Assembly: GCA_029254745.1 (NCBI GenBank) | Contig: JAQWWZ010000060.1 | Coordinates: forward strand, 1-53,730 | Source: Opitutales bacterium | GTDB taxonomy: Bacteria > Verrucomicrobiota > Verrucomicrobiia > Opitutales > Seribacteraceae | Direction: 5' to 3' | Length of the DNA: 53,730 nucleotides | Part shown: one piece after another, positions 10,700 to 53,730 of the stretch | Layout of the letters: each line of letters begins with the position of its first letter | Position numbering within the stretch: the first letter of the stretch is position 1 | The notes under the pieces: generated by a model | Seen by the model: the letters and a program-made list of their open reading frames with translations, nothing else | Told to the model about the DNA's origin: nothing | Database searches by the model: none | Position numbers and translations under genes: made by a program

Positions 10700-13600
10700 A
10701 TGATCAAAAATACTTACCTCGGTTTACCCCTATTCTGTCTCTTGTGCACTGGACTCTTTGCTAGCCCTTCCTCAAAAGATACTGCACTCGCCAAAAGTGG
10801 AAATAGCAAGCCTACGATCGTAAAACTTAGCTCTGCGGAAGAAACAGCAATTCTCAAGAAGGGTGGGTTGCGTGTGCCCGAAGGATTTGAAGCCACCCTT
10901 TTTGCTCCCTGGCAAACGGCGAACTATCCGGTCTATGTTGCAGCCTCTCCCAGTGGTGACCTTTATGTTTCCAGTGATGGATGCGGTTCTCTTGGACGGT
11001 CCGCAGATCGTGGTAGAGTCTTACGACTTCGGGATAAAGATGGGGATGGCCGAGCAGATGAGGTGACGGAGTTCATTTCCTCAATAGACTCCCCACGTGG
11101 GTTAATCTGGGATCATGATCGATTGTATCTTTTACATCCACCCCATGTTTCTGTTTTCTTTGATCGAGACGGTGATGGTGTGGCTGAGGAAAGTAAAAGA
11201 TTGGTTTCCAATATTGCGTTCGGGTTTAAAGACCGCCCGGCAGATCACACCACTAATGGGCTGGACTTGGGTGTTGACGGATGGATTTATGTAGCCGGCG
11301 GAGATTTTGGCTTCATCGAAGCAATTGGATCCGATGGGAGGAAATTACAGAACCGCGGAGGTGGGGTCTACCGTTTTCGTCCGGATGGATCCGGCTTGGA
11401 ATTGTTTTCTTACGGCACCCGAAATATCTTGGCAGTACCCACCAGTCCATTACTCGATTTGTTTGGACGGGATAATACCAATGACGGGGGGGGGTGGAAT
11501 GTGCGCTTTCATCACTTTAGTGGATTGGATGATCACGGCTATCCTCGCTTGTACTTAAATTTTGCTGATGAGATTATTTCTCCACTTGCAGATTACGGCG
11601 GAGGTTCCGGATGTGGTGGGGTTTACATACATGAGCCTGGTTTTCCCAAGGAGTGGGCCCATGCCCCTTTTACCTGTGATTGGGGAACAGCTGGTCTTTA
11701 CCGCCACAGTGTTCAAAGAAAGGGTGCTGGTTTTGTTGAAATTGAAAAGCCAAAGAAATTTATTGCTATTTCCAGACCAACAGATGCGGATGTCGATGGA
11801 TCAAGTCGGGTTTATCAAGCGAGCTGGAGTGGGCCTGCTTCTTTTAAATGGGCAGGTCCGGAACACGGGTTTGTGGTTCAGGTAAAGCCCAAGGGTTACA
11901 AGCCCGAGCCCCTGCCGGATTTTGAAAAACTTACTGATCAGGAATTGATTGTTTTATTTGAATCACCCAGTCAGGTACGGGCAATGTTAGCTCAGCGTAC
12001 TTTACTTCGCCGTGCTGAGACCGGAGGAACCAAAGAATCTCTTTATGCTTTTGCCAAGAATTCATCGAAAGAACTTCGTTCCAGGGTAATTGCCCTGTAT
12101 TCGATTTCTCAGCGACTTTTACTGAGTGCAAGTTTTCCCCGTGATAAAGAACTGGCAGTGCTTTCAGAGCTCTCCAATGATCCTCAACTTTCTCCCTTTG
12201 TCATGCGAGCACTCGGGGATCTTGGTATGGATCTGATAACCCAGGGGAAGCCAGGCTTGGCTTCGGTTGATTTATTAAAGAAAGGCCTTAATAGTCCTGA
12301 TCCGAGGACACGGTTGGAAGCGATCTTCTCGACTGTCCGACAAAGAAGGGTAGAGTTGGCCGATGAAATAACATCGAGCTTGGGGCATGCAGATCCTACT
12401 CTTTCCCATGTTGCCTACCGGGCACTAGAAGAACTTGGCACCTACAAGCCAGCTCTCGCCCTGTTTAAGAACCCAGCTTCCACAAAATCACAAAGAAGAG
12501 GGGCAGCCTTAGCCCTTATGCGAATCCATTCAACCGAAGTGGTTCATTCCTTGGAAAAGCATCTGATAAGCCAGGATGATATTTTATTTGATCTTTCATT
12601 TGAGATTCTCGCACGGCTCTACCACAAAGAGAAAGAATGGGATAGTAAGCACTGGGGCGGCAGACCTGACACTAGAGGACCGTATTATGAAATGGAGACA
12701 TGGGAAGAGTCCAACCGTATTCTCTCTGTTCTACGCAATACAATTGAGATAGTATCAAAGGGAAAAGTAGGGGACTATTTAGCCATTATGAGCCAAAATC
12801 GAATCGAGGATGATCAATCTCTTCTCAAAATGGTTGAATTAGCCGAATACGATTCCTCACTTGTCCCTACGATGGTCTCTCAACTTGCGGATAAGGGAGA
12901 CATACCGGAGGCGGCGCTCAAGATTTTGGCCACCTCAGCCACTAACAAGAAGCTTGAATCAAATGTGCTTACTCAAATTGTAAAATGTTTACTTAAGCCA
13001 GCTGACCCCCAATTTGTGACTCCTGTCATAAATGCTTTGATTATCATTGAATCACGCGGGGACTGGGTTGCTCTTCGTCCAGGTAAAGATGCTTTTCTTA
13101 AAAATAACCGCAAACTTGACCAGTTTCATCATACACTCGTTGAATTGGCAAAGGGTGACCCTAAAATAGCTCAAACAAGATGGGCCTATTCTGGCGTAGT
13201 TGACATTTCCAGCCGGAAAAATGCGAATGCCGAAGCCAAGGCTAATACGGTTACATTTATTGAGGAATGTTGGAGGGAACCGGCGAAAAAAGTACTCTTG
13301 ATCAATGCCCTGGTTGATTTACGGAATCGTTCCTATGATGATCAACTTATTGCTGCAGCGAACGATTCTAACCCTGATGTCAAGAAAGCTGCAGTTCGTG
13401 CAATGCGTCATTTGAAAATCGAAGCAATAAACGAAGACACCACCCCAAAAGTGGCCAGTTTGCAGGCAGATCAGGTCCTCATTCAGGTAAAGGCAATCAA
13501 GGGGGATATCGGATTAGGTGAAGCTATTTTTACCAAGGCAGCCTGTGCAAGTTGTCACACCGTTCGTGAGGATGATCCACAGAAAGGGCCCTATCTCGGT

Positions 13601-43401: not shown

Positions 43402-45330
43402 TCAGTTTTCAACCGTAATATGATTCGCCAATCCCCTTTGATGTACGGGATTGGTGTTGGATGATACAATATTGTCTGGTCGATTCTGCCCTGTCCTAAT
43501 TTCATGTGGATCCAGGGAATACACTTTGGGTTGAAAAGTTTTTCCTTTTATTCGAATGGTGTAGAGGATTTCCCCAGTCTTTAAATTCTTGATCTGAACC
43601 ACAGGATCTTTTTTTGAAAATACAAGCTTGGGTAACCAACCTTTCACCGGGCGTCCATCATTTTGGGCCATGTTGAAAGTGACAGGCCAGCCTGGGAATT
43701 GGGCTTTGTCTCCATCGGATACTTTGGAAAACCGGGGCCAGCATTCAAAGGTTATCTTTCGGCTTTTCTTATTAAACCGGGCGACGCCAAAGCCATCGGC
43801 TCTTTGTAATTCATTTCTTCGGTCCTCAGGGTTGGCATAGGCATGCATGGTAATCTTATTACCGAGCCCATCCTCAAAATCCCCCGTCCATGGCAGGGGC
43901 GAACCAGGAATGGGCCGGGAGCCGGGTTTTTCATCCTCCGGCTTCCACCAGCGTCCATAGATGGTATTGACAATGGCCGGGCTGGTGAAAGCAAAGGGTC
44001 CGTCCCGGTGGGACTCAATCCCGTGCTGTACCACCACCCCCAGGTGTTGGTCACCGCACAGGTGGGTGGCCATGGCTTTTCTCAATTCGTGCAGTGCCCT
44101 GTTTCGACCTTTTTGGGGCCATGCATTGCTGTCGAGGTCGGCAAGCAGGCGGCTGTTCGGATGCCCATGGATATGGACAGCTCCGCAGAAAGCGGTGGCG
44201 GAAAGCGCCGCTTTGATATCAGCACCCTCCCAGTCCTGACTCCAGTCTGACAAAAACTTCAGCTGTCGCTCACCGAGAAGCACAAGGCCGTCCAGGTCCA
44301 CCGCCTTGCGGTCATAACTTGGGTCATTGATATGGTCTGGGCGCGGACCCATCTTGGGGATTTTTCCACCCGGACCGGTTTTGAACTTTCGGTCTTCGAG
44401 AATCGCGAAGTCAATCCCGCCGACACGCAGACGGGTAAAGTATACTTCCAGCCCCCGCTTCAGTTTTGCCGGGTCAACCGGGTCAGGCAGATGCCAGGCC
44501 TGTTGGCGTTGCACCATATTGACATATGGGATCGGGTAAAAGTATCCCCCTGAATCTCCCTGGGGTGAAGAGGCTTGTATGCCGGACTCCCCCCATAGGT
44601 TTGCCTGCCCCACATCGTGGTCATCCGGGATGGTCACCGTGGGGCGGTCTTTGATGAGATCCCGAAACTGCAACCCAAATTCAATCCACCCGGCAGTGTG
44701 TTCAGTATGATGGTAGGTCTGATCTCCGGCAAAAAAGAGCATGTCGGGGTCAATCAATTTGAGGTTTTCAAGGATTTGAGGGCGCGGGCCTTTGGTCCGG
44801 CTGGAGTTACAGGAGAGATTGCCCACCACAATGGTGTCCTGATCGATCGGATCCTTCCGGATTAAGCCCTGAAAAGATGCCCGTTTCCCATGCCTTACCC
44901 GATAGGGAATATCCCGGGCCGAGTCCCAGTTTTCAATCCGGAAATGTGCGGTCCACCCAGGGTAGGTGATTTTAACCTTGGCGATTTCCTTCCATTCTTT
45001 TCCCTGCTTGATCTCAAGCCGGACTTCCCGCGACTCATCAGGCATCAGGGGATAAAGCTGTCCGGTTAACTTCAGGGTGCCCCCGTCCTGGGTGTAGAGA
45101 GCAAAGGCCACCACTTCATCCCGTGGTACCTTCAATTTGATAATCCTTTTTGGCGGTTTTCCTTTTTGGGAAGGAACTTCCGGGGGCCGGTCCCGTTTCC
45201 ACCATTCTCCCGTGGACAGGTGATCCAGGCTGGGGAATTTTTTTCCAAATAATTCCCGGGAATCAGGTTCAGCACCGAGGGAGCACGCGAAAAAAGCGAA
45301 GCAAAAAAAAGATAAAAAGTAGTAATTCAT
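43402..45330 (-). CDS. Secreted PhoD-like alkaline phosphatase / phosphodiesterase
   Basis: The protein has 642 aa with a signal peptide (~1-20). Metal motifs are intact: G-N-L-S-C-N-S-S, F-F-A-G-D-Q-T-Y-H-H-T, I-P-D-D-H-D-V-G and H-L-C-G-D-Q-H-L-G. It is longer than B. subtilis PhoD (~583 aa). Expected action: release of phosphate from extracellular phosphodi- or monoesters, with Fe/Ca cofactor as known for PhoD. The AraC-type regulator gene lies 81 bases upstream on the same strand and may share a transcript. Confidence 0.9.
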   Translation of the reverse strand: MNYYFLSFFCFAFFACSLGAEPDSRELFGKKFPSLDHLSTGEWWKRDRPPEVPSQKGKPPKRIIKLKVPRDEVVAFALYTQDGGTLKLTGQLYPLMPDESREVRLEIKQGKEWKEIAKVKITYPGWTAHFRIENWDSARDIPYRVRHGKRASFQGLIRKDPIDQDTIVVGNLSCNSSRTKGPRPQILENLKLIDPDMLFFAGDQTYHHTEHTAGWIEFGLQFRDLIKDRPTVTIPDDHDVGQANLWGESGIQASSPQGDSGGYFYPIPYVNMVQRQQAWHLPDPVDPAKLKRGLEVYFTRLRVGGIDFAILEDRKFKTGPGGKIPKMGPRPDHINDPSYDRKAVDLDGLVLLGERQLKFLSDWSQDWEGADIKAALSATAFCGAVHIHGHPNSRLLADLDSNAWPQKGRNRALHELRKAMATHLCGDQHLGVVVQHGIESHRDGPFAFTSPAIVNTIYGRWWKPEDEKPGSRPIPGSPLPWTGDFEDGLGNKITMHAYANPEDRRNELQRADGFGVARFNKKSRKITFECWPRFSKVSDGDKAQFPGWPVTFNMAQNDGRPVKGWLPKLVFSKKDPVVQIKNLKTGEILYTIRIKGKTFQPKVYSLDPHEIRTGQNRPDNIVSSNTNPVHQRGLANHITVEN

Positions 45331-45411
45331 TACTAATCTTAAAGACTATGAAAATTTAATTTACAATGCTAAAAGCATAGGTTTGCCTGATTAGAAAAGG
45401 GAAGTCACTCC

Positions 45412-46230
45412 CTAAATCTCAACCTGGCTTGCTTTCCATTGCCGGGGGGACTGGCCCACTTTTTTTCGAAACCACCGGGCGAAATAATTGGGGTCATGGA
45501 AACCGCAGTGCCAGGCGACTTCTGCAATCCGGGTCTTTTCCTCTCGGAGCCCGGCAAAGGCACGCTCCTGCCTGAGTTCATCCAGCAAGGCGCTCAGGTT
45601 GAGGTTGGATTCCCGACGGACTTTGCGGTTCAGGGAACTTAAGTCCTCGTCCAGCAAGATGGCAATTTCACCGGGTGAAGTGGGGGATTCCTTGCAAGCC
45701 CGAAGCACCCTGCGTATTTGATCAGTTATTGGGTACACCTCCCGGATTTCTGAAGCTTTGCATTCAAGCTCCGCTGACAGAATCGAGAAAATATCAAGGA
45801 TCTTAGCGGCGGTTCTGATTTCGCTCGCCGGTGTGATATCCACTGATTCTGTCAAGGCGTGAAGACTGCTTTCCACCCTCGAAAGAATAAGCGGAGGGAG
45901 GATTCGGTGTTCCCTGTATCTTGCTTTCTTTTTCCTTTCACGAAAATTGATTACCAAAGAGATAGGCGGGCTTTTCATCGATTTGATAAAACCATGGGCG
46001 ACCCCGGGTGGGAAGAAGAGAAATGAGCCACGACTTACCGGTGTCCGCTTTGTTTCCAGGGTCTGTACACCTTGTCCTCGCAGGTAGAGAAGAAATTGGG
46101 AGTGTGGATGCCGGTGCGTGTCAATTTGATCACTTTTTTGGGTATGCCGTTGGTGGGCAAAGCGGAGGATGGAATACCCCGGGATGGATATCCGTAAATT
46201 TTCCAAAAATATGGGTTGGAATGGGCTCAC
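45412..46230 (-). CDS. AraC-family transcriptional regulator
   Basis: The 272-aa protein has a cupin-like N-terminal sensing domain (H-R-H-P-H-S-Q-F-L-L-Y-L-R-G, then F-L-F-F-P-P-G-V-A-H-G-F). The C-terminal AraC domain has two HTH motifs, ending C-G-F-H-D-P-N-Y-F-A-R-W-F-R-K-K-V-G-Q-S. The start is a GTG at 46230. It is divergent from the aldolase/isomerase/dehydrogenase operon (gap 89 bases), the usual position for its sugar-responsive activator. Confidence 0.92.
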   Translation of the reverse strand: MSPFQPIFLENLRISIPGYSILRFAHQRHTQKSDQIDTHRHPHSQFLLYLRGQGVQTLETKRTPVSRGSFLFFPPGVAHGFIKSMKSPPISLVINFRERKKKARYREHRILPPLILSRVESSLHALTESVDITPASEIRTAAKILDIFSILSAELECKASEIREVYPITDQIRRVLRACKESPTSPGEIAILLDEDLSSLNRKVRRESNLNLSALLDELRQERAFAGLREEKTRIAEVAWHCGFHDPNYFARWFRKKVGQSPRQWKASQVEI

Positions 46231-46319
46231 TAAATCAAGACAAAAAAAATGTCTGAAATATGCTAATTTTGCAAGTTCTGTCCTAACAGGTTTTCACAAT
46301 ACCTGATAAAATAGGTGAG

Positions 46320-47405
46320 ATGATTAACCAAGTAGACCAACTCCGACCAGATACTTCCTGGTCTGAAACCGTATGGGGCCACAGCCGGGAGGAAAGCCAT
46401 TTGGATGATATTGCCAAGCCCCGTCTCTGTGTGGCTGCCCTTCTTCCTTTCAAGGAAGGGCAACCTGATTGGGGTAGTTTTGAAAATATGCTCCGCTGGA
46501 TGACTGCGTGTGGCGAGCACTTTGGGGTGGATATCATCTTTGTTCTCAATGCTGATACCGGTTATGTGTTTCAACTTTCATCTCACCTTTATGAAGAGGT
46601 GATCACTCGTTTCAAAACCTTGTATCCTGCCAGGTCTTTTATTTGCGGGGTGACCGCAGTCGGTGGATCTGCCACAAACTTTGAGGCATCTGCCTACCAA
46701 CCCCATCTTGAAATTGCCCAGGCTCACCAGCCCTGCGAGGTGATGATTATGACCTCGCAGGCACTTAACTCCTTGGGGCCGGAGGACAGGCGGGATGCTT
46801 ATTTTAACCTTGCAGAGTATGTAGCCGTACCCGCCCTGGTTCATGCACTCGAGCCCGCTTTTGTTCCCTGGGCCACCCCTTTTGAGCCTTGGCTCCTCCA
46901 TCAACTCGCCGGGCATGAGAAATTTGTGGGAGGGAAAATTTCCACGCTGGACGAACCTCACTTCCTGTACTGGGCTTCCATGTGCCGGGACTTGGGCCTG
47001 GACTTTGTGCCTTACAGTGGCGATGATTTCGGGATCGCCTCCGCCATTAGGATGGGACTGCCTCTCTTAATAGGAGCGGGTGTGTCCGCCTGCCCCCTTA
47101 TTTGTGCGGCCAAAAAATACTGGAGAAAAGACGACTTTGATGCCCGGGTATACAAGTTATTTGAAGCCTTTCAATCCCTGGAAGACTCCGTCTTTCGCCT
47201 CGATGAAAATGGCAGTGCCGCAGGGTACAAACACAGCACCGCTGAAATTCTCCGGATGCTCGGCCTTATTGAATGTGCCGAGATTCATCCGGACTGCCCC
47301 GATCGGCGGACAGGGGATGAAGCCAGCCGCATGCGGGAAGCTCTTATTCGTCCGCTCCGCATGGCAGAGCGTATGAATATTCCTTTTTATTCTTTTCCGT
47401 CATGA
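46320..47405 (+). CDS. Dihydrodipicolinate-synthase-like TIM-barrel aldolase (DUF993-like)
   Basis: The protein has 361 aa. C-V-A-A-L-L-P-F-K-E-G near 37 and F-V-G-G-K206-I-S-T place it in the DHDPS/NAL aldolase superfamily, with Lys206 as the likely Schiff-base residue. It resembles the DUF993 branch and is ~60 residues longer than DapA. AGGTGAG precedes the ATG. As first gene of a three-gene operon with an isomerase and a Gfo/Idh/MocA dehydrogenase, it probably cleaves or forms a keto-acid sugar derivative. It overlaps the next gene by four bases. Confidence 0.83.
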   Translation: MINQVDQLRPDTSWSETVWGHSREESHLDDIAKPRLCVAALLPFKEGQPDWGSFENMLRWMTACGEHFGVDIIFVLNADTGYVFQLSSHLYEEVITRFKTLYPARSFICGVTAVGGSATNFEASAYQPHLEIAQAHQPCEVMIMTSQALNSLGPEDRRDAYFNLAEYVAVPALVHALEPAFVPWATPFEPWLLHQLAGHEKFVGGKISTLDEPHFLYWASMCRDLGLDFVPYSGDDFGIASAIRMGLPLLIGAGVSACPLICAAKKYWRKDDFDARVYKLFEAFQSLEDSVFRLDENGSAAGYKHSTAEILRMLGLIECAEIHPDCPDRRTGDEASRMREALIRPLRMAERMNIPFYSFPS

Positions 47406-48235
47406 AAGCCGATCCCCTTACCGACTTTTCCCGCCTTTGTGTCCATACCATCACGACCCGGGGGTGGAAGCTGGATGAAGCAGTAGATCAATATGCGGAG
47501 GCAGGAGTTTCTGGAATTACGGTCTGGAGGCAATGGCTAGAGGGACAGGACCCTCAAAAGTCCGGAGAAAGAATCCGGGCTGCCGGGCTTAAAGTCGTCT
47601 CTCTCTGTCGGGGTGGGTTTTATCCCGCCCTGGAGGAAAAGACCCGGAGCCAGTCCATTGAGGATAATAAGCGAGCCATAGAAGATGCGGCTGCCCTTGG
47701 GGCCCCCCTGGTTGTTTTGGTTTGCGGAGCCGTCCCTGGGCAATCCCTTTCCGAATCCCGAAAGCAGATTGCCGAGGGTATTGCCGCCACCTTGCCTCTT
47801 GCGGAATCGCTGGGAGTCAGGCTTGCCATCGAGCCCCTGCACCCGATGTATGCGGCTGACCGTTCTGCGATCAATACCCTGGCCACCGCCAACGACCTGT
47901 GCGACGAATTGAATCATCCCCTGGTCGGGATCGCCTATGATGTCTATCACCTCTGGTGGGATCCCGACCTGGAAGCCCAGACCAGGCGCACCGCAGAAGC
48001 CAACCGTTTTTTTGCCTATCATGTCTGTGACTGGATGACACCCACCACTGATTTACTCAATGACCGCGGGCTGATGGGCGAGGGCTGCATTGACCTCCGG
48101 GGTATCCGATCCATGGTTGAGCGAAACGGATTTTCCGGCATGATCGAGGTCGAGGTTTTCTCCAACCGCTGGTGGGCCAAGCCACCCCGTGAATTTTTAC
48201 AAGAGATTAAATACACCTACCTAAATCACACCTGA
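47402..48235 (+). CDS. Sugar-phosphate isomerase/epimerase (xylose-isomerase-like TIM barrel)
   Basis: The 277-aa AP-endonuclease-2-like barrel has metal-ligand candidates in I-E-P-L-H-P-M-Y, G-I-A-Y-D-V-Y-H-L-W-W-D, A-Y-H-V-C-D-W and I-E-V-E-V-F-S. These fit the Glu-Asp-His-Glu metal site of this superfamily. No signal peptide. It shares ATGA with the aldolase gene (47402-47405) and is followed three bases later by the dehydrogenase, so the three are surely co-expressed. Confidence 0.9.
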   Translation: MKADPLTDFSRLCVHTITTRGWKLDEAVDQYAEAGVSGITVWRQWLEGQDPQKSGERIRAAGLKVVSLCRGGFYPALEEKTRSQSIEDNKRAIEDAAALGAPLVVLVCGAVPGQSLSESRKQIAEGIAATLPLAESLGVRLAIEPLHPMYAADRSAINTLATANDLCDELNHPLVGIAYDVYHLWWDPDLEAQTRRTAEANRFFAYHVCDWMTPTTDLLNDRGLMGEGCIDLRGIRSMVERNGFSGMIEVEVFSNRWWAKPPREFLQEIKYTYLNHT

Positions 48236-48238
48236 GGA

Positions 48239-49384
48239 ATGATAAAAGAACACAAACTTGGAATTATTATGAATGGCGTCACTGGACGCATGGGAACCAA
48301 CCAACACCTGATCCGCTCCATCTGTGCCATTCGCGATCAGGGCGGGGTACAGGTTTCCCCGGATGAAGTCATCACCGTGGACCCGATCCTCACGGGTCGG
48401 AATGAAAATAAGCTTAGGGCCCTGGCAGAAAGAACCGGGGTCAAACATTTCACCACCAAGCTCGATGAAGCCTTGGCCGATCCCGCAAACCAAATCTTTT
48501 TCGATGCCAGCTCCACCCTTCACCGTTCCCGCTTTGTGGAAATGGCCGCCAAGGCAGGAAAAGCGGTCTACTGTGAAAAGCCCACCGCGGTGACCACCGA
48601 TGAGGCCCTGCGTCTGGCCAGGCTGTGTGAAGAGGCGGGAGTCAAAAACGGGGCGGTTCAGGATAAACTCTGGCTGCCCGGCATTCGTAAGCTTAAGACC
48701 CTGATCAAGCAGGGCTTTTTTGGAGAGATTTTATCAGTTCGCGGGGAATTTGGCTATTGGGTGTTTACCGGGCACGATGAGGATCAACCTGCCCAGCGTC
48801 CGAGTTGGAACTACCGCAAGGAAGATGGCGGGGGAATCATGATCGATATGCTCTGTCATTGGCGTTACCTGGTCGATGATGTGTTTGGCCCCATCAAAAG
48901 TATATCCTGTCACGCCGCCACCCATATCTCCGAGCGGGTGGATGAAAATGGTAAGTCATTCCCCTGCACCGCGGATGATGCCTGCTATGCCACCATGCAA
49001 TTGGAAAACGGGGTTATCTGCCAGTTCAACAGTTCCTGGACTGTACGGGTTCGGCGGGATGATCTTTTTGTGATGCAGGTGGATGGTAGCAAGGGTTCGG
49101 CTATGGTCAACCTCCGCGGATGCAGAACCCAGGGGCTCGGAGTCACCCCCAAGCCGGTATGGAACCCGGATATGGAACAAGCGATTAATTTTTATGAAGG
49201 GTGGTCGGAAATGCCCGATGCCACCACTTATGACAATGCCTTTAAGATACAATGGGAGCTCTTTCTCCGTCATGTCGCCCTCGATGAACCTTTCCCATAT
49301 GACCTCCGCTCAGGAGCCCGGGGAGTGGAGCTTGCAGAGCTCGGTCTTCAATCCTCCGAACAAAGAAAGTGGGTCGACGTTTGA
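48239..49384 (+). CDS. Gfo/Idh/MocA-family oxidoreductase
   Basis: The 381-aa NAD(P)-dependent sugar dehydrogenase has an N-terminal Rossmann signature N-G-V-T-G-R-M-G (12-19), the E113-K-P motif (Y-C-E-K-P-T-A) with its conserved Lys, and [12 protein letters not shown] near 195-206 supplying the catalytic Asp/His. It is cytoplasmic and third in the operon. Family members oxidise sugar hydroxyls to keto groups, which fits the keto-sugar theme of this window. Confidence 0.92.
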
Positions 49385-49417
49385 CCGGATGCAGGCAGGG
49401 CCTGTTTGAGAAAAAGG

Positions 49418-49431
49418 TTTACAGCTGTAAA
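49418..49431. promoter_or_regulatory. 14-base perfect palindrome (candidate operator)
   Basis: TTTACAGCTGTAAA lies 60 bases before the third PVC-cytochrome start and 33 bases after the dehydrogenase stop. Its size and symmetry resemble operators of LacI/GntR-type sugar regulators. No such regulator is encoded next to it; the AraC protein would normally use direct repeats. Confidence 0.4.
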
Positions 49432-49490
49432 GCTAATGTAGTAATCAATCCTTTGATGCATTTGCATCCCTTTACGATGGCTCTATAGTT

Positions 49491-51629
49491 ATGAAAATGT
49501 TTACCCAGTCGATTTGTCGGACCGTCCTTTTATATATGGCCTCCTTTTCCATGCTTTTGGGACAGCAGGGAGACCAGAAGGAAAAAGAAAAAGATCTTCT
49601 TTCCTCCCTGAACTGGAAGAGGTGGTCCCCGGGTATCGTGCCGGTTTATTCGGCAGAGGATTCGCTGGCGAGGTTTAAAGTGGCACCGGGTTTTAAAGTG
49701 GAACTGGTGGCTTCCGAACCCTTTGTGAAAGACCCAGTATTTGTGGATTGGGACGATCAGGGCCGGATGTGGGTGGGGGAGTTGCGCTCCTACATGATGA
49801 ACCTTGACGGTTCAGGTGAAAACCAGCCTATCAGCCGGGTCATGGTATTGGAGGATACGGACTTAGACGGGAAGATGGACAAGGCCACCCCCTTTCTGGA
49901 GGACATGGTCAATGTCCGCAGTCTTGCTTTTATTGACGGAGCTGTCCTGGTCGTGGAATCCGGTGCCCTTTGGCTATGCCAGGACAAGGACGGGGATTTG
50001 CGGTGCGACCAAAAGGAAAAACTGCTCGATTTTGCGACTACCGCCCATGACAATATCGAACATGCGGAAAATGCCCTGCATTTTGCCTTGGACAATTGGA
50101 TGTACAACTCAAAGTCGACCCGCAAACTGGCCTGGCGACAGGGGAAGCTGATCGAGCAGCCCGCCACCGCCCGTGGGCAGTGGGGAATGGCCACCGACGC
50201 ATACGGCCGGCTTTATTACAATTCTAACAGCGTATGGTTTGAAGCCGACTGGGAGATGTATGACCACCAATGGCCTCGTAAGGGAACCAAGGCCCGGGCA
50301 CCCACCAAGCAGGTCTTTGCCATCCGCCCCAATACCGCTCTCAACCGCAATTACCGCCCCGGTCACATCCTCGAGGATGGCCGGGTAGCCCGGGTCACCA
50401 CCATCAGTGGCCTTGCCGTGCACAGCCACGGTGCCTATGGGGATGAATGGGAGGGGGCGATTTTCTCGATGTCCCCCGGGACCAATACCGTTGGTGCCTT
50501 TGTCCCCGCCAAGTCCTTTCCTCGAGCCGACCATTATGTGCATAAATTATACCCGGATGCCATCTGGGAAAAGCGTGAGTTTCTCGCCAGCACCGATGAG
50601 CGTTTTCGCCCGGTCAATGCATCGATCGGTCCCGATGGTTGCCTTTATGTGGTCGACTTTTACCGGGGTGTAATCCAGCACAAACGATTTCTCACCTCCT
50701 ATCTTCGCAGGCAGTCCGCTGAGCGCAGTTTGGATAAACCCATTGGTCTCGGACGGATATACCGGATCATCCCGGAGAACCACCAGCCGGTCCCTCCCCC
50801 CCAGGATTTAGTTTCCGGTTTGTCTCACCCTTATCTTTGGTGGCGTTTGCGTTCCCAAAAAAGAATGGTTGAAGGAAACCGTTTGGAGTTGGCTCCTGCC
50901 ATCACTGAACTGGCAGAAGATGCAACTGCCACGCCCCACGCCCGGGTGCATGCCCTTTGGGTACTTGCCGGTTTGGAAAAGTTGGAAGAGTCCACCATTG
51001 AGCAGGCCATCCAGGATCCTCACTGGTTTGTCAGTATGACCGGGCTCCGATTGGCCGGTGAATCCAAAGGGGTGGGTGCTTTTTTCCCGGATGAATTTAA
51101 GGGTCTGGCAGAGAAGGTTTCCCAAAACAAAGATTTCCCCACTGCCTACACCTCCTATGCCGCCCTGACCGCCAAGTCCGGGTACCCCTCCAGGGTTATC
51201 CAGTCCTACAAAGACAAGGAAGCGGACTGGTTGGTGAAAGACAGTGAGCTTTTGAGCCTCTACCGCAAGGGAAGGGATCAGTATAATGTCAGCTGCGGTG
51301 CCTGCCACCAGGCCGATGGCAAAGGCTTGCCCAACATGGCACCCACCCTGGCCAGCAGTGACTGGGTCACCGGGGATGCCCGGCGGTTGATTGGGGTGGC
51401 GGTGCATGGGCTGATGGGCCCCATCAAGGTAAATGGCAAGGAAATTACCGGAGTTCCTCCGGTGATGCCTGCCCATGGTTTCATGAAGGATGACCAGCTT
51501 GCATCCATCCTCACCTATGTGCGCAATGCATGGGGAAACCGGTCGGATGCGGTCTTGCCGGAGGATATTGCCCGTTATCGAAAAACAGAAGCATCCCGGG
51601 TAGCCCCCTGGACCGAGTCCGAGTTCTGA
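49491..51629 (+). CDS. PVC-type dehydrogenase / CxxCH cytochrome (third, short copy)
   Basis: The 712-aa protein has a signal peptide (~1-25). The propeller-like domain (~60-440) begins F-K-V-A-P-G-F-K-V-E-L-V-A-S-E-P and carries D-T-D-L-D-G-K-M-D and D-K-D-G-D-L-R-C-D loops. A short helical region (~460-590) replaces the long HEAT array of the other two copies. The C-terminal cytochrome c has heme site C602-G-A-C-H606 and H-Q-A-D-G-K-G-L-P. It starts 106 bases after the dehydrogenase gene and probably belongs to the same pathway, feeding electrons from a periplasmic oxidation step to the respiratory chain. Confidence 0.92.
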   Translation: MKMFTQSICRTVLLYMASFSMLLGQQGDQKEKEKDLLSSLNWKRWSPGIVPVYSAEDSLARFKVAPGFKVELVASEPFVKDPVFVDWDDQGRMWVGELRSYMMNLDGSGENQPISRVMVLEDTDLDGKMDKATPFLEDMVNVRSLAFIDGAVLVVESGALWLCQDKDGDLRCDQKEKLLDFATTAHDNIEHAENALHFALDNWMYNSKSTRKLAWRQGKLIEQPATARGQWGMATDAYGRLYYNSNSVWFEADWEMYDHQWPRKGTKARAPTKQVFAIRPNTALNRNYRPGHILEDGRVARVTTISGLAVHSHGAYGDEWEGAIFSMSPGTNTVGAFVPAKSFPRADHYVHKLYPDAIWEKREFLASTDERFRPVNASIGPDGCLYVVDFYRGVIQHKRFLTSYLRRQSAERSLDKPIGLGRIYRIIPENHQPVPPPQDLVSGLSHPYLWWRLRSQKRMVEGNRLELAPAITELAEDATATPHARVHALWVLAGLEKLEESTIEQAIQDPHWFVSMTGLRLAGESKGVGAFFPDEFKGLAEKVSQNKDFPTAYTSYAALTAKSGYPSRVIQSYKDKEADWLVKDSELLSLYRKGRDQYNVSCGACHQADGKGLPNMAPTLASSDWVTGDARRLIGVAVHGLMGPIKVNGKEITGVPPVMPAHGFMKDDQLASILTYVRNAWGNRSDAVLPEDIARYRKTEASRVAPWTESEF

Positions 51630-51768
51630 TTTTTTATAAACTGGTTTTTCACCTTTTTTAATCACTGCGAGGCCGGGTGGGCTCGGTCTTACTCTCTTGA
51701 TGTTTCATACACCCCGCTGTGAATTCTCGGAGTTAACTCATCGGGGAAAGTTCTTTCACTCATATCCT

Positions 51769-53730
51769 ATGAAGCCAGTCTCTTCCTTTTTCCTTTTCTC
51801 GCTCCTGTTTTCGGTCTTATTGAAAGCCGCCGCCCCCGTTCCATACACCGGGAAGATTTCGGTCCGAGGGGTGAATTATTTTGGGGAAGCCCAGTTCCGG
51901 TTTTCTTTGCACGATGGCCAGGGTACCACTTATTGGCAAAACGGGGAAGAGGTGGACGACACCCTAAAGGTTTCCATCCATAATGGCCGTTATCATGTAT
52001 TACTGGGAGGGCAGGGGATGAACCCTCTGCCGCCGGAGTTATTTCTGGAGCATGAGGAGCTGCACTTACGGGTGGAGTTTAAATTCGAGGAAGGGGATGT
52101 CCTTCAACATCTTGCTCCCGATCAGGTCATCACCGCCACCCCCCGTGCCCTGGTGGCGGAGTGGGCAAAGATGGCAAAAATATCGGAACGGGTAAGCCCC
52201 GGTGCCATCACCCGCTCCATGCTGAGTGAGGATGTGCTTGCTGATTTAAACAAGACCGGCGTCCCGGCTGAGCCTGGTTCTCCACCACCCTCTGCCGAAT
52301 CCAGTATCAGCCTTGATATGCTCGCCAGTGATGTCAAAGCCGAGCTCAACGCCACCATCGGTCAGTCGCGCCTCGCTGCGGATGTGCTTGCGGCGCTTAA
52401 TAAGACCATTACCCGTGAAATGTTATCTCCTGATGTACGGGCAGACCTCAACCGGACAATTACCAAGAGCATGCTCGCTGAGGATATTAAAAACGACCTA
52501 AACCCGACGATCACGCTGGGCGACTTGGCCCCCGAAGTCATTGCCGACCTGAACGATTCCATACAGCAGGGTTCCATCACTCTTGATCTGCTTTCTTCTC
52601 AGGTTAAAGCCGATCTGAACCGTACCATCACCAAGTCCATGCTGAGTCAGGAGGTGTTGAATGAATTAAATTCCAGTTCGGGTGGTGGGGGTGTGGTGCC
52701 GGGTAGTTTGCTTGCGGTGCCTGCCAACCAGTCCGCCCCGTCGGGGTATTCACTCTATCAATCTGGTGATCCCAAAGAATTGGTCTGGGAAGAGAAAGCA
52801 CCCGTGAGTGTGGCGAGGGATCTAAGCGATGGTGCAGAGATTATAGGCGATAAAATATACTTGGTTGGCGGTGGGGATGGCTCAGGTGCCAAAAATATTG
52901 CCGAACGCTATGATCCTGGGACCAATTCTTGGGAGACACTAAGTCCTATGTCAGTTTCAAGAGCAGGAGTAGCCTCTGCAGTTTTAGAAGGAAAGCTTTT
53001 CGCAATCGGTGGAGTGGGTGTACAAAGTGTGGAAATTTATGATCCTGCGACTGAGCAATGGTCAGTTGGAGTTTCTTTACCTTTCGAAGTCAGTAAAGGA
53101 ACTGCAATTACCATAGCGGGTAAAATTTATCTATTCGGTGGTACGGATTCCTCTGGTAATTGGAGAAACCAAGTTTTGTGCTTTGACCCAGTTGATAATC
53201 AGTGGGTCAATAAGACACCAATGCCAACGGCCCGATATGGTCCAAAATTGGTTTGGTATCAAAATCGTTTATGGGTAATTTCCTTTGGCAACATCGTTGA
53301 GAGTTACGATCCTGCTACGGATACTTGGCAAACAGAAGCTTCATTAACAACTCAAAGAAATTGGCCGGTTGCATGGACTTCTTATGGTCGGATATATGTA
53401 GCCGGAGGTTATAACGGCACAGGTCATCTTTCATCAATTGAAGTCTATAACCCTAAGAGTGAAGCGTGGACAATCTTTGGTCACTTACCAGAAAATAAGC
53501 GAGAGGCTGATGCAGTCGTGTTCAGTAATAAAGTCTTCCTATTCGCTGGTAATGATGGTCCATCTACCTACTCCAACAAAGTATTCGCCGCCGATTTGAA
53601 TGCATCGGTGAGTGGGGTGTTTGATTTGTACCGCAAGGATGGCAATGCCTCCAGCGGGGTACCCACCGTGCAGGCAGAAGTGGCGGATGGATCGGTGACG
53701 GCGAGTAAGATGGCCAGTAATACCATCACC
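51769..53730 (+). CDS. Secreted modular protein with short tandem repeats and kelch propeller (partial, 3' cut)
   Basis: The frame is open from the ATG at 51769 through the window edge (654 codons, no stop). A signal peptide (~1-22) and a ~120-residue beta domain come first. Residues 147-301 hold eight ~17-residue repeats with consensus I-T-x-x-M-L-x-x-D-V-x-A-D-L-N-x-T, then a Ser/Gly linker. Six kelch repeats (G-K-I-Y-L-F-G-G type, each with Y-D-P-x-T-x-x-W) span ~345-605, and a further V-T-A-S-K-M-A-S-N-T-I-T repeat lies at the end. It is probably a large cell-surface or secreted adhesin-like protein. The kelch block is AT-rich (about 38% G+C) between about 65% flanks. Confidence 0.88.
   Translation, partial: MKPVSSFFLFSLLFSVLLKAAAPVPYTGKISVRGVNYFGEAQFRFSLHDGQGTTYWQNGEEVDDTLKVSIHNGRYHVLLGGQGMNPLPPELFLEHEELHLRVEFKFEEGDVLQHLAPDQVITATPRALVAEWAKMAKISERVSPGAITRSMLSEDVLADLNKTGVPAEPGSPPPSAESSISLDMLASDVKAELNATIGQSRLAADVLAALNKTITREMLSPDVRADLNRTITKSMLAEDIKNDLNPTITLGDLAPEVIADLNDSIQQGSITLDLLSSQVKADLNRTITKSMLSQEVLNELNSSSGGGGVVPGSLLAVPANQSAPSGYSLYQSGDPKELVWEEKAPVSVARDLSDGAEIIGDKIYLVGGGDGSGAKNIAERYDPGTNSWETLSPMSVSRAGVASAVLEGKLFAIGGVGVQSVEIYDPATEQWSVGVSLPFEVSKGTAITIAGKIYLFGGTDSSGNWRNQVLCFDPVDNQWVNKTPMPTARYGPKLVWYQNRLWVISFGNIVESYDPATDTWQTEASLTTQRNWPVAWTSYGRIYVAGGYNGTGHLSSIEVYNPKSEAWTIFGHLPENKREADAVVFSNKVFLFAGNDGPSTYSNKVFAADLNASVSGVFDLYRKDGNASSGVPTVQAEVADGSVTASKMASNTIT
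52207..52671 (+). repeat. Eight degenerate tandem repeats, ~51 bp each
   Basis: Codons 147-301 of the kelch gene contain eight copies of I-T-x-x-M-L-x-x-(D/E)-V-x-A-(D/E)-L-N-x-T, separated by a 15-residue Pro/Ser spacer after copy 1 and a few residues after copy 6. The alternation suggests a short helix-turn unit, perhaps a stalk or trimerising segment. Confidence 0.85.

What the first reader, a model, noticed from the sequence alone, without database searches (positions are those of the whole stretch)
52800..53590. AT-rich kelch cassette inside a GC-rich gene
Hand counts give 39/60 G+C at 52321-52380 and 40/60 at 53641-53700, but 23/60 at 53341-53400 within the kelch repeats. The reading frame is unbroken. 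This looks like a domain swapped into a modular surface protein by recombination, with the flanking repeat segments as possible recombination substrates. It could be a diversity-generating surface-protein system based on exchange of middle domains.
Basis: partly seen in the sequence, partly recalled or inferred. Interest (0 to 1): 0.65.

Follow-up and report, generated by a model that had tools for sequence, protein, structure and literature searches.

The report
Mosaic modular secreted kelch protein
The contig ends inside a secreted-protein gene of a marine Verrucomicrobiota bacterium that belongs to a large family assembled from swappable parts, and sequence comparisons show that these parts have been exchanged by recombination within genomes and even between genera.

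Summary
In detail: the kelch block (about 52,804-53,598) has GC3 0.33 against 0.61 for the rest of the gene (z = -7.0; no other long ORF in the window comes close), in an unbroken frame that runs off the contig end. AT-richness alone does not prove a recent swap, because kelch blocks are lower in GC3 than the preceding part in 17 of 18 family members. The domain-exchange idea is nevertheless well supported by independent evidence. The gene belongs to a multi-copy family (signal peptide, undescribed beta-sandwich N-domain, ITxxML..DVLxDLN repeats, then kelch, RCC1, FGE-sulfatase, LamG or Ig modules). Its N-domain groups with FGE-sulfatase proteins, not with most kelch proteins. AU tests reject one tree for N-domain and kelch, and for N-domain and LamG. 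The kelch flanks are recently shared DNA (33 silent-identical codons with another genus; 32 with a paralogue) while the kelch is synonymously saturated. In two close relatives the same locus carries different 3' modules, and one module is shared across a large divergence at pS 0.19 against about 0.79. At the window's own locus a relative has an FGE-type member and several have none. Exchange by homologous recombination is likely; programmed switching is not shown.

The parts
51724..51768 (+). 5' leader shared by family members (GGAGTT.ACTCATCGGGGAAAGTTCTTTCA...); left edge of the family unit, about 95 nt after the upstream stop codon
   Evidence: blastn: homology with the remnant in L016 begins at window 51724, 82.7%
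51769..51834 (+). probable signal peptide (MKPVSSFFLFSLLFSVLLKAAA)
   Evidence: sequence; N-terminal helix in the model; boundary judged by eye
51787..52170 (+). conserved N-domain (VPYTGKI..GVNYFG...), Ig-like beta sandwich, not in Pfam/NCBIfam/PHROGs
   Evidence: pLDDT above 90 over about residues 21-120
52207..52671 (+). ITxxMLxxDVLxDLN repeats (5 matches to the motif), predicted short helix pairs, probable stalk
52672..52803 (+). left linker SSSGGGGVVPGSLLAVPANQSAPSGYSLYQSG...: 52687-52762 nearly identical to the C71 paralogue; 52612-52702 93.4% identical to a G057 gene in which a different module follows
52804..53598 (+). AT-rich kelch beta-propeller module (5 Pfam repeats)
53568..53730 (+). 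right linker (KVFAADLNASVSGVFDLYRKDGNASSGVP...SKMASNTIT), 97.5% identical to C71 and 92% to G027 of another genus; the contig ends here
49491..51629 (+). 712-aa upstream neighbour with a c-type-cytochrome-like CxxCH motif; with 48239-49384 it marks the orthologous locus in relatives

Best explanation
The gene is one mosaic member of a lineage-restricted family of exported multidomain proteins. A conserved frame (signal peptide, beta-sandwich N-domain, helical repeats, linkers, Ig-like domain) carries interchangeable binding or catalytic-fold modules (kelch or RCC1 propellers, LamG/ConA-like, FGE-sulfatase fold). Modules are exchanged in frame by ordinary homologous recombination or gene conversion in the shared linkers and frame segments, with donors from paralogues in the same genome and from DNA of other species and genera. 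The kelch block therefore has a different history from its flanks. Shown: the modular architecture, incongruent histories, recently shared linkers beside saturated modules, replacement at a fixed locus, and inter-species module sharing. Inferred: RecA-type homologous recombination as the agent, location outside the cell, and altered binding specificity as the benefit.
For: Architecture. N-domain tree places the window with FGE-type proteins of G017 (support 100/99) and needs at least 5 changes of the kelch label. AU tests reject shared trees for N-domain/kelch and N-domain/LamG in both directions, p at most 1.5e-5. Within single genomes, paralogue pairs with similar N-domains (pS 0.30-0.54) have saturated kelch and LamG (pS 0.67-0.78). 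Window vs C71: 32 consecutive silent-identical codons at the left linker, 0 of 2000 permutations; window vs G027 (another genus): 33 at the right linker, 0 of 2000, where a 505-aa orthologue has pS 0.76. G021 vs G023 at the same locus: neighbours 92-99% aa identical, kelch pS 0.03, then a break to Ig pS 0.65 and LamG pN 0.53; the G023 tail is 87% identical over 612 nt to a gene of a third species with a different kelch. C-terminal module of C71 vs G057: 90.3% aa, pS 0.19, against pS 0.77-0.80 for four orthologues and 30% aa upstream of the break. Orthologous locus: FGE-type member in G020, none in several genomes.
Against: No close donor of this particular kelch module was found (best DNA match 74% over 291 nt), so its own transfer is not dated. 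Most genomes are fragmented draft assemblies and the window gene is cut by the contig end; single misjoins cannot be excluded. Some pairs (G014 L067/L075, window/G057) do not show a significant longest identical run on their own. Faster evolution of the kelch could add to the contrast.
Confidence: 0.78

Rival explanations
1. Old domain architecture plus unequal rates: the gene has long had its kelch domain, and kelch and LamG simply evolve faster and drift to AT-rich codons while frame segments are constrained.
For: Kelch GC3 is lower than that of the preceding segment in 17 of 18 members, so the compositional contrast is inherited; protein divergence of kelch is higher in most pairs.
Against: Synonymous sites also differ (pS 0.30 N-domain against 0.74 kelch in the same pair); N-domain and module trees conflict; identical DNA tracts across genera end at module borders; the same locus holds different modules in close relatives.
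Confidence: 0.12
2. Assembly artefact: repeats shared between paralogues caused misjoined contigs, creating false mosaics.
For: Most members in G000 lie at contig ends, a sign of unresolved repeats.
Against: Mosaic members occur as complete genes inside contigs of many independent assemblies, several with names typical of single-cell genomes; the exchanged G057/C71 module is divergent (pS 0.19), not identical; C71 is not a contaminant from a G057-like cell (a neighbouring gene has pS 0.78-0.80).
Confidence: 0.06
3. A programmed switching system: one expression locus converted from silent donor cassettes within a clone, as in vlsE or pilE.
For: Conserved ends with a variable middle; 5' remnants and truncated members exist (L016, L085).
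Against: Most members begin with their own signal peptide and stand at scattered loci; no array of promoterless cassettes was seen; no reverse transcriptase.
Confidence: 0.04

Closest known systems
Segmentally variable genes (Zheng, Roberts and Kasif 2004, PMC387263)
   Same: Long variable regions between conserved regions in genes that probably meet the environment; the authors propose binding functions for the variable parts
   Different: Here whole fold classes alternate behind one frame, and shared DNA tracts at module borders give direct evidence of recombination
Antigen 43 autotransporter domain shuffling (PMC10058404)
   Same: Multi-copy exported proteins diversified by shuffling of subdomains
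   Different: Unrelated protein; no autotransporter barrel was detected here; modules differ in fold, and exchange reaches across genera
vlsE / msp2 / vmp cassette gene conversion (review PMC4534519)
   Same: Conserved ends flank a variable region; homologous recombination is the inferred agent
   Different: No single expression site with silent cassettes; no evidence of switching within a clone
Phage tail-spike receptor-binding module swapping (e.g. PMC8432352, abstract only)
   Same: Binding modules swapped behind a conserved anchoring part
   Different: Chromosomal bacterial genes; no relative of the N-domain found in viral contigs

Membership tests
Kelch beta-propeller | Multiple kelch repeats | tested here: met
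   Kelch_1 E = 1.5e-48, 5 stretches
N-acetylneuraminate epimerase / YjhT mutarotase | Score above the curated cut-off | tested here: not met
   41.5 bits against 416; 39 against 256
Segmentally variable genes | Variable regions of at least 70 aa between conserved regions | tested here: met
   Kelch about 265 aa at pN 0.36-0.44 beside N-domain pN 0.03-0.13 in four within-genome pairs; that paper's own detection procedure was not rerun
Diversity-generating retroelement | Reverse transcriptase in the genome | tested here: not met
   PF00078: no match in G000, assembly 96.5% complete
Cassette gene-conversion antigenic variation (vlsE, pilE, msp2) | Silent, incomplete donor copies feeding one expression site | tested here: not met
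   Members with their own 5' ends and signal peptides at scattered loci; a few remnants only
Cassette gene-conversion antigenic variation (vlsE, pilE, msp2) | Switching within a clone | not testable with these tools
   Needs deep or long-read clonal data
Type Va autotransporter (Ag43-like) | C-terminal beta-barrel translocator | tested here: not met
   No such domain in the complete members scanned; the window gene itself lacks its 3' end
Prophage tail fibre | Homologues in viral contigs | tested here: not met
   N-domain scan of IMG/VR gave no relative

The most novel reading that the evidence does not exclude
The linkers act as evolved docking sites for in-frame module exchange, forming an open, lineage-wide combinatorial system in which free-living marine bacteria trade propeller and lectin-like tips through a shared pool of modules, possibly at elevated rates under phage or grazer pressure.
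Probability: 0.15. Interest if true: 0.8.

Novelty: new variant of a known kind. Interest (0 to 1): 0.55.

Why it matters
It documents an apparently undescribed family of exported modular proteins in little-studied marine Opitutales, with unusually clear traces of module exchange at fixed loci and across genera. Such proteins probably decide what these cells bind, or what binds them. The shared-linker frame gives a concrete, testable model of how free-living bacteria diversify exported proteins without a DGR.

Tried and rejected
DGR: no reverse transcriptase. Phage origin: no viral relatives of the N-domain. Naming the N-domain: no Pfam, NCBIfam or PHROGs hit; the Foldseek PDB search gave only weak Ig-like sandwich matches, none at E <= 0.001, and BFVD only weak ones. 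AT content as a clock: rejected, because it is a family-wide trend. An integrase fragment beside a member (L017) was found, but nothing comparable was identified at the other loci. Literature searches found no description of this family. The script stopped half way on a file-name error; its second part was rerun.

Full report
OBSERVATION. The gene starts at ATG 51769 and runs off the end of the contig at 53730; the window is the whole contig C61 of G000. GC3 is 0.63 in the N-domain, 0.59 in the repeats, 0.335 in the kelch block and 0.66 in the right linker. The contrast has z = -7.0 by codon permutation, and no block of the same size in the 12 other long ORFs of the window differs by more than 0.123. 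Coding GC3 over the contig is 0.466, so the frame matches its GC-rich neighbours (0.60-0.64) while the kelch lies below the mean.

IS COMPOSITION PROOF OF A RECENT SWAP? No. In 18 family members with both N-domain and kelch, kelch GC3 is lower than that of the preceding part in 17 and lower by at least 0.08 in 11. In three GC-rich genomes (G028, G031, G034) kelch GC3 is 0.66-0.67, so composition follows the host in the long run. The contrast is a family trait and dates nothing.

THE FAMILY. G000 holds at least nine full, partial or remnant members, most cut by contig ends, which suggests near-identical repeats that the assembler could not resolve. Among 57 whole genomes (the window's own and its relatives) 36 have matches, mainly in the same family; named relatives are marine Opitutales/Opitutia/Verrucomicrobia drafts, several with names typical of single-cell genomes (handles were matched to records by equal contig lengths, the single-cell reading is my own knowledge, and some of those titles say MAG). 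Members share a signal peptide, an N-domain of about 130 aa and usually ITxxMLxxDVLxDLN repeats, followed by kelch, RCC1, LamG, FGE-sulfatase, Bact_surface_Ig-like or Ig domains in many orders. The N-domain has no Pfam, NCBIfam or PHROGs match and is predicted as an Ig-like beta sandwich with pLDDT above 90, followed by short helices for the repeats. Foldseek gave no PDB match at E <= 0.001.

DIFFERENT HISTORIES OF THE MODULES. On the N-domain tree the window joins two FGE-sulfatase proteins of G017 with support 100/99, far from the clade that holds 13 of the 18 kelch proteins; the kelch label needs at least 5 changes. With 15 taxa the kelch data reject the N-domain tree and the reverse; with 10 taxa the same holds for LamG. 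Within single genomes (G007, G011, G014, G021) paralogue pairs with N-domain pS 0.30-0.54 have kelch pS 0.67-0.78 and LamG pS 0.67-0.78, while the C-terminal tail is again similar (pS 0.17-0.39) and the kelch-Ig linker is in two of the four (pS 0.13 and 0.29; 0.51 and 0.67 in the others). Because silent sites show the contrast, faster protein evolution alone does not explain it.

BORDERS OF THE WINDOW'S KELCH BLOCK. Against the C71 paralogue, 52687-52762 and 53569-53730 are near-identical (97.5% for the latter) and the kelch is about 62%; the run of 32 silent-identical codons at the left linker is never reached in 2000 permutations. Against G027, of another genus, the right linker is 92% identical with 33 consecutive silent-identical codons (0 of 2000), while the rest of the gene is saturated and a 505-aa orthologue has pS 0.76. 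The same linker is only about 82% identical or less to other members, so it is not simply frozen DNA. The left edge, 52612-52702, is 93.4% identical to a G057 gene in which another module follows, although that run is not significant by itself (94 of 2000).

EXCHANGE CAUGHT AT A FIXED LOCUS. L079 (G021) and L080 (G023) lie between the same neighbours (92-99% aa identical). Their kelch modules differ at pS 0.03, then identity falls abruptly near nucleotide 1680 of the gene, and Ig (pS 0.65) and LamG (pN 0.53) are different. The G023 tail is 87% identical over 612 nt to L067 of G014, a gene with a different kelch. The C-terminal module of C71 and of a G057 gene are 90.3% aa identical with pS 0.19, whereas four orthologous genes have pS 0.77-0.80, including a neighbour of the C71 gene itself. 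This is horizontal sharing of a module onto unrelated N-terminal parts. At the window's own locus (48239-51629), G020 has an FGE-type member, and G010, G012, G019, G002, G016 and G005 have none in the stretches read. The orthologue of a G017 member survives in G000 only as a 170-nt 5' remnant.

MECHANISM. Shown: modularity, incongruence, recent sharing of linkers, replacement at a locus, transfer across large distances. Inferred: homologous recombination or gene conversion through linkers and frame segments, by the cell's general machinery. No reverse transcriptase was found, and no silent cassette array was seen. Function (binding to glycans, particles, cells or phage, with specificity set by the propeller or lectin-like tip) is inference from domain types.

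LIMITS. Draft assemblies; the window gene lacks its 3' end; no donor for this kelch module; two of the pairs tested show no significant single run. The pairwise pS values are uncorrected proportions. The G023 gene also runs into a contig end, so its LamG is seen only in part.

Noticed in passing
L016 4088-4257 (G000:C50): 5' remnant (leader plus about 45 codons) of a family gene at the locus where G017 and G009 carry FGE-type members; the rest is gone
   Followed up: partly
G000 contigs C61, C71, C68, C64, C41, C22, C72: Family members run into or lie at contig ends, so true copy number is probably higher
   Followed up: partly
L017 2412-3020 (G000:C22): Tyrosine-integrase-like fragment (PHROG integrase hits) near a family gene; a short similar ORF (95 aa at 81%) lies near a member in L062
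   Followed up: partly
L104 3650-4238, L108 5900-6500, L109 about 10830-10930: Interspersed repeat (GCGAGGGC...GTGGCGATCCACTG...CACGATGGATTGCCGCGTC) just downstream of the neighbour gene in relatives, not seen at the window locus
   Followed up: no
G000:C22 (10,790-aa frame) and G000:C13 (3,793-aa frame): Very long open frames that match the C-terminal part of the C71 protein
   Followed up: no
window 43405-53730: GC3 of genes rises from about 0.42-0.47 to 0.57-0.64 toward the right end of the contig
   Followed up: no
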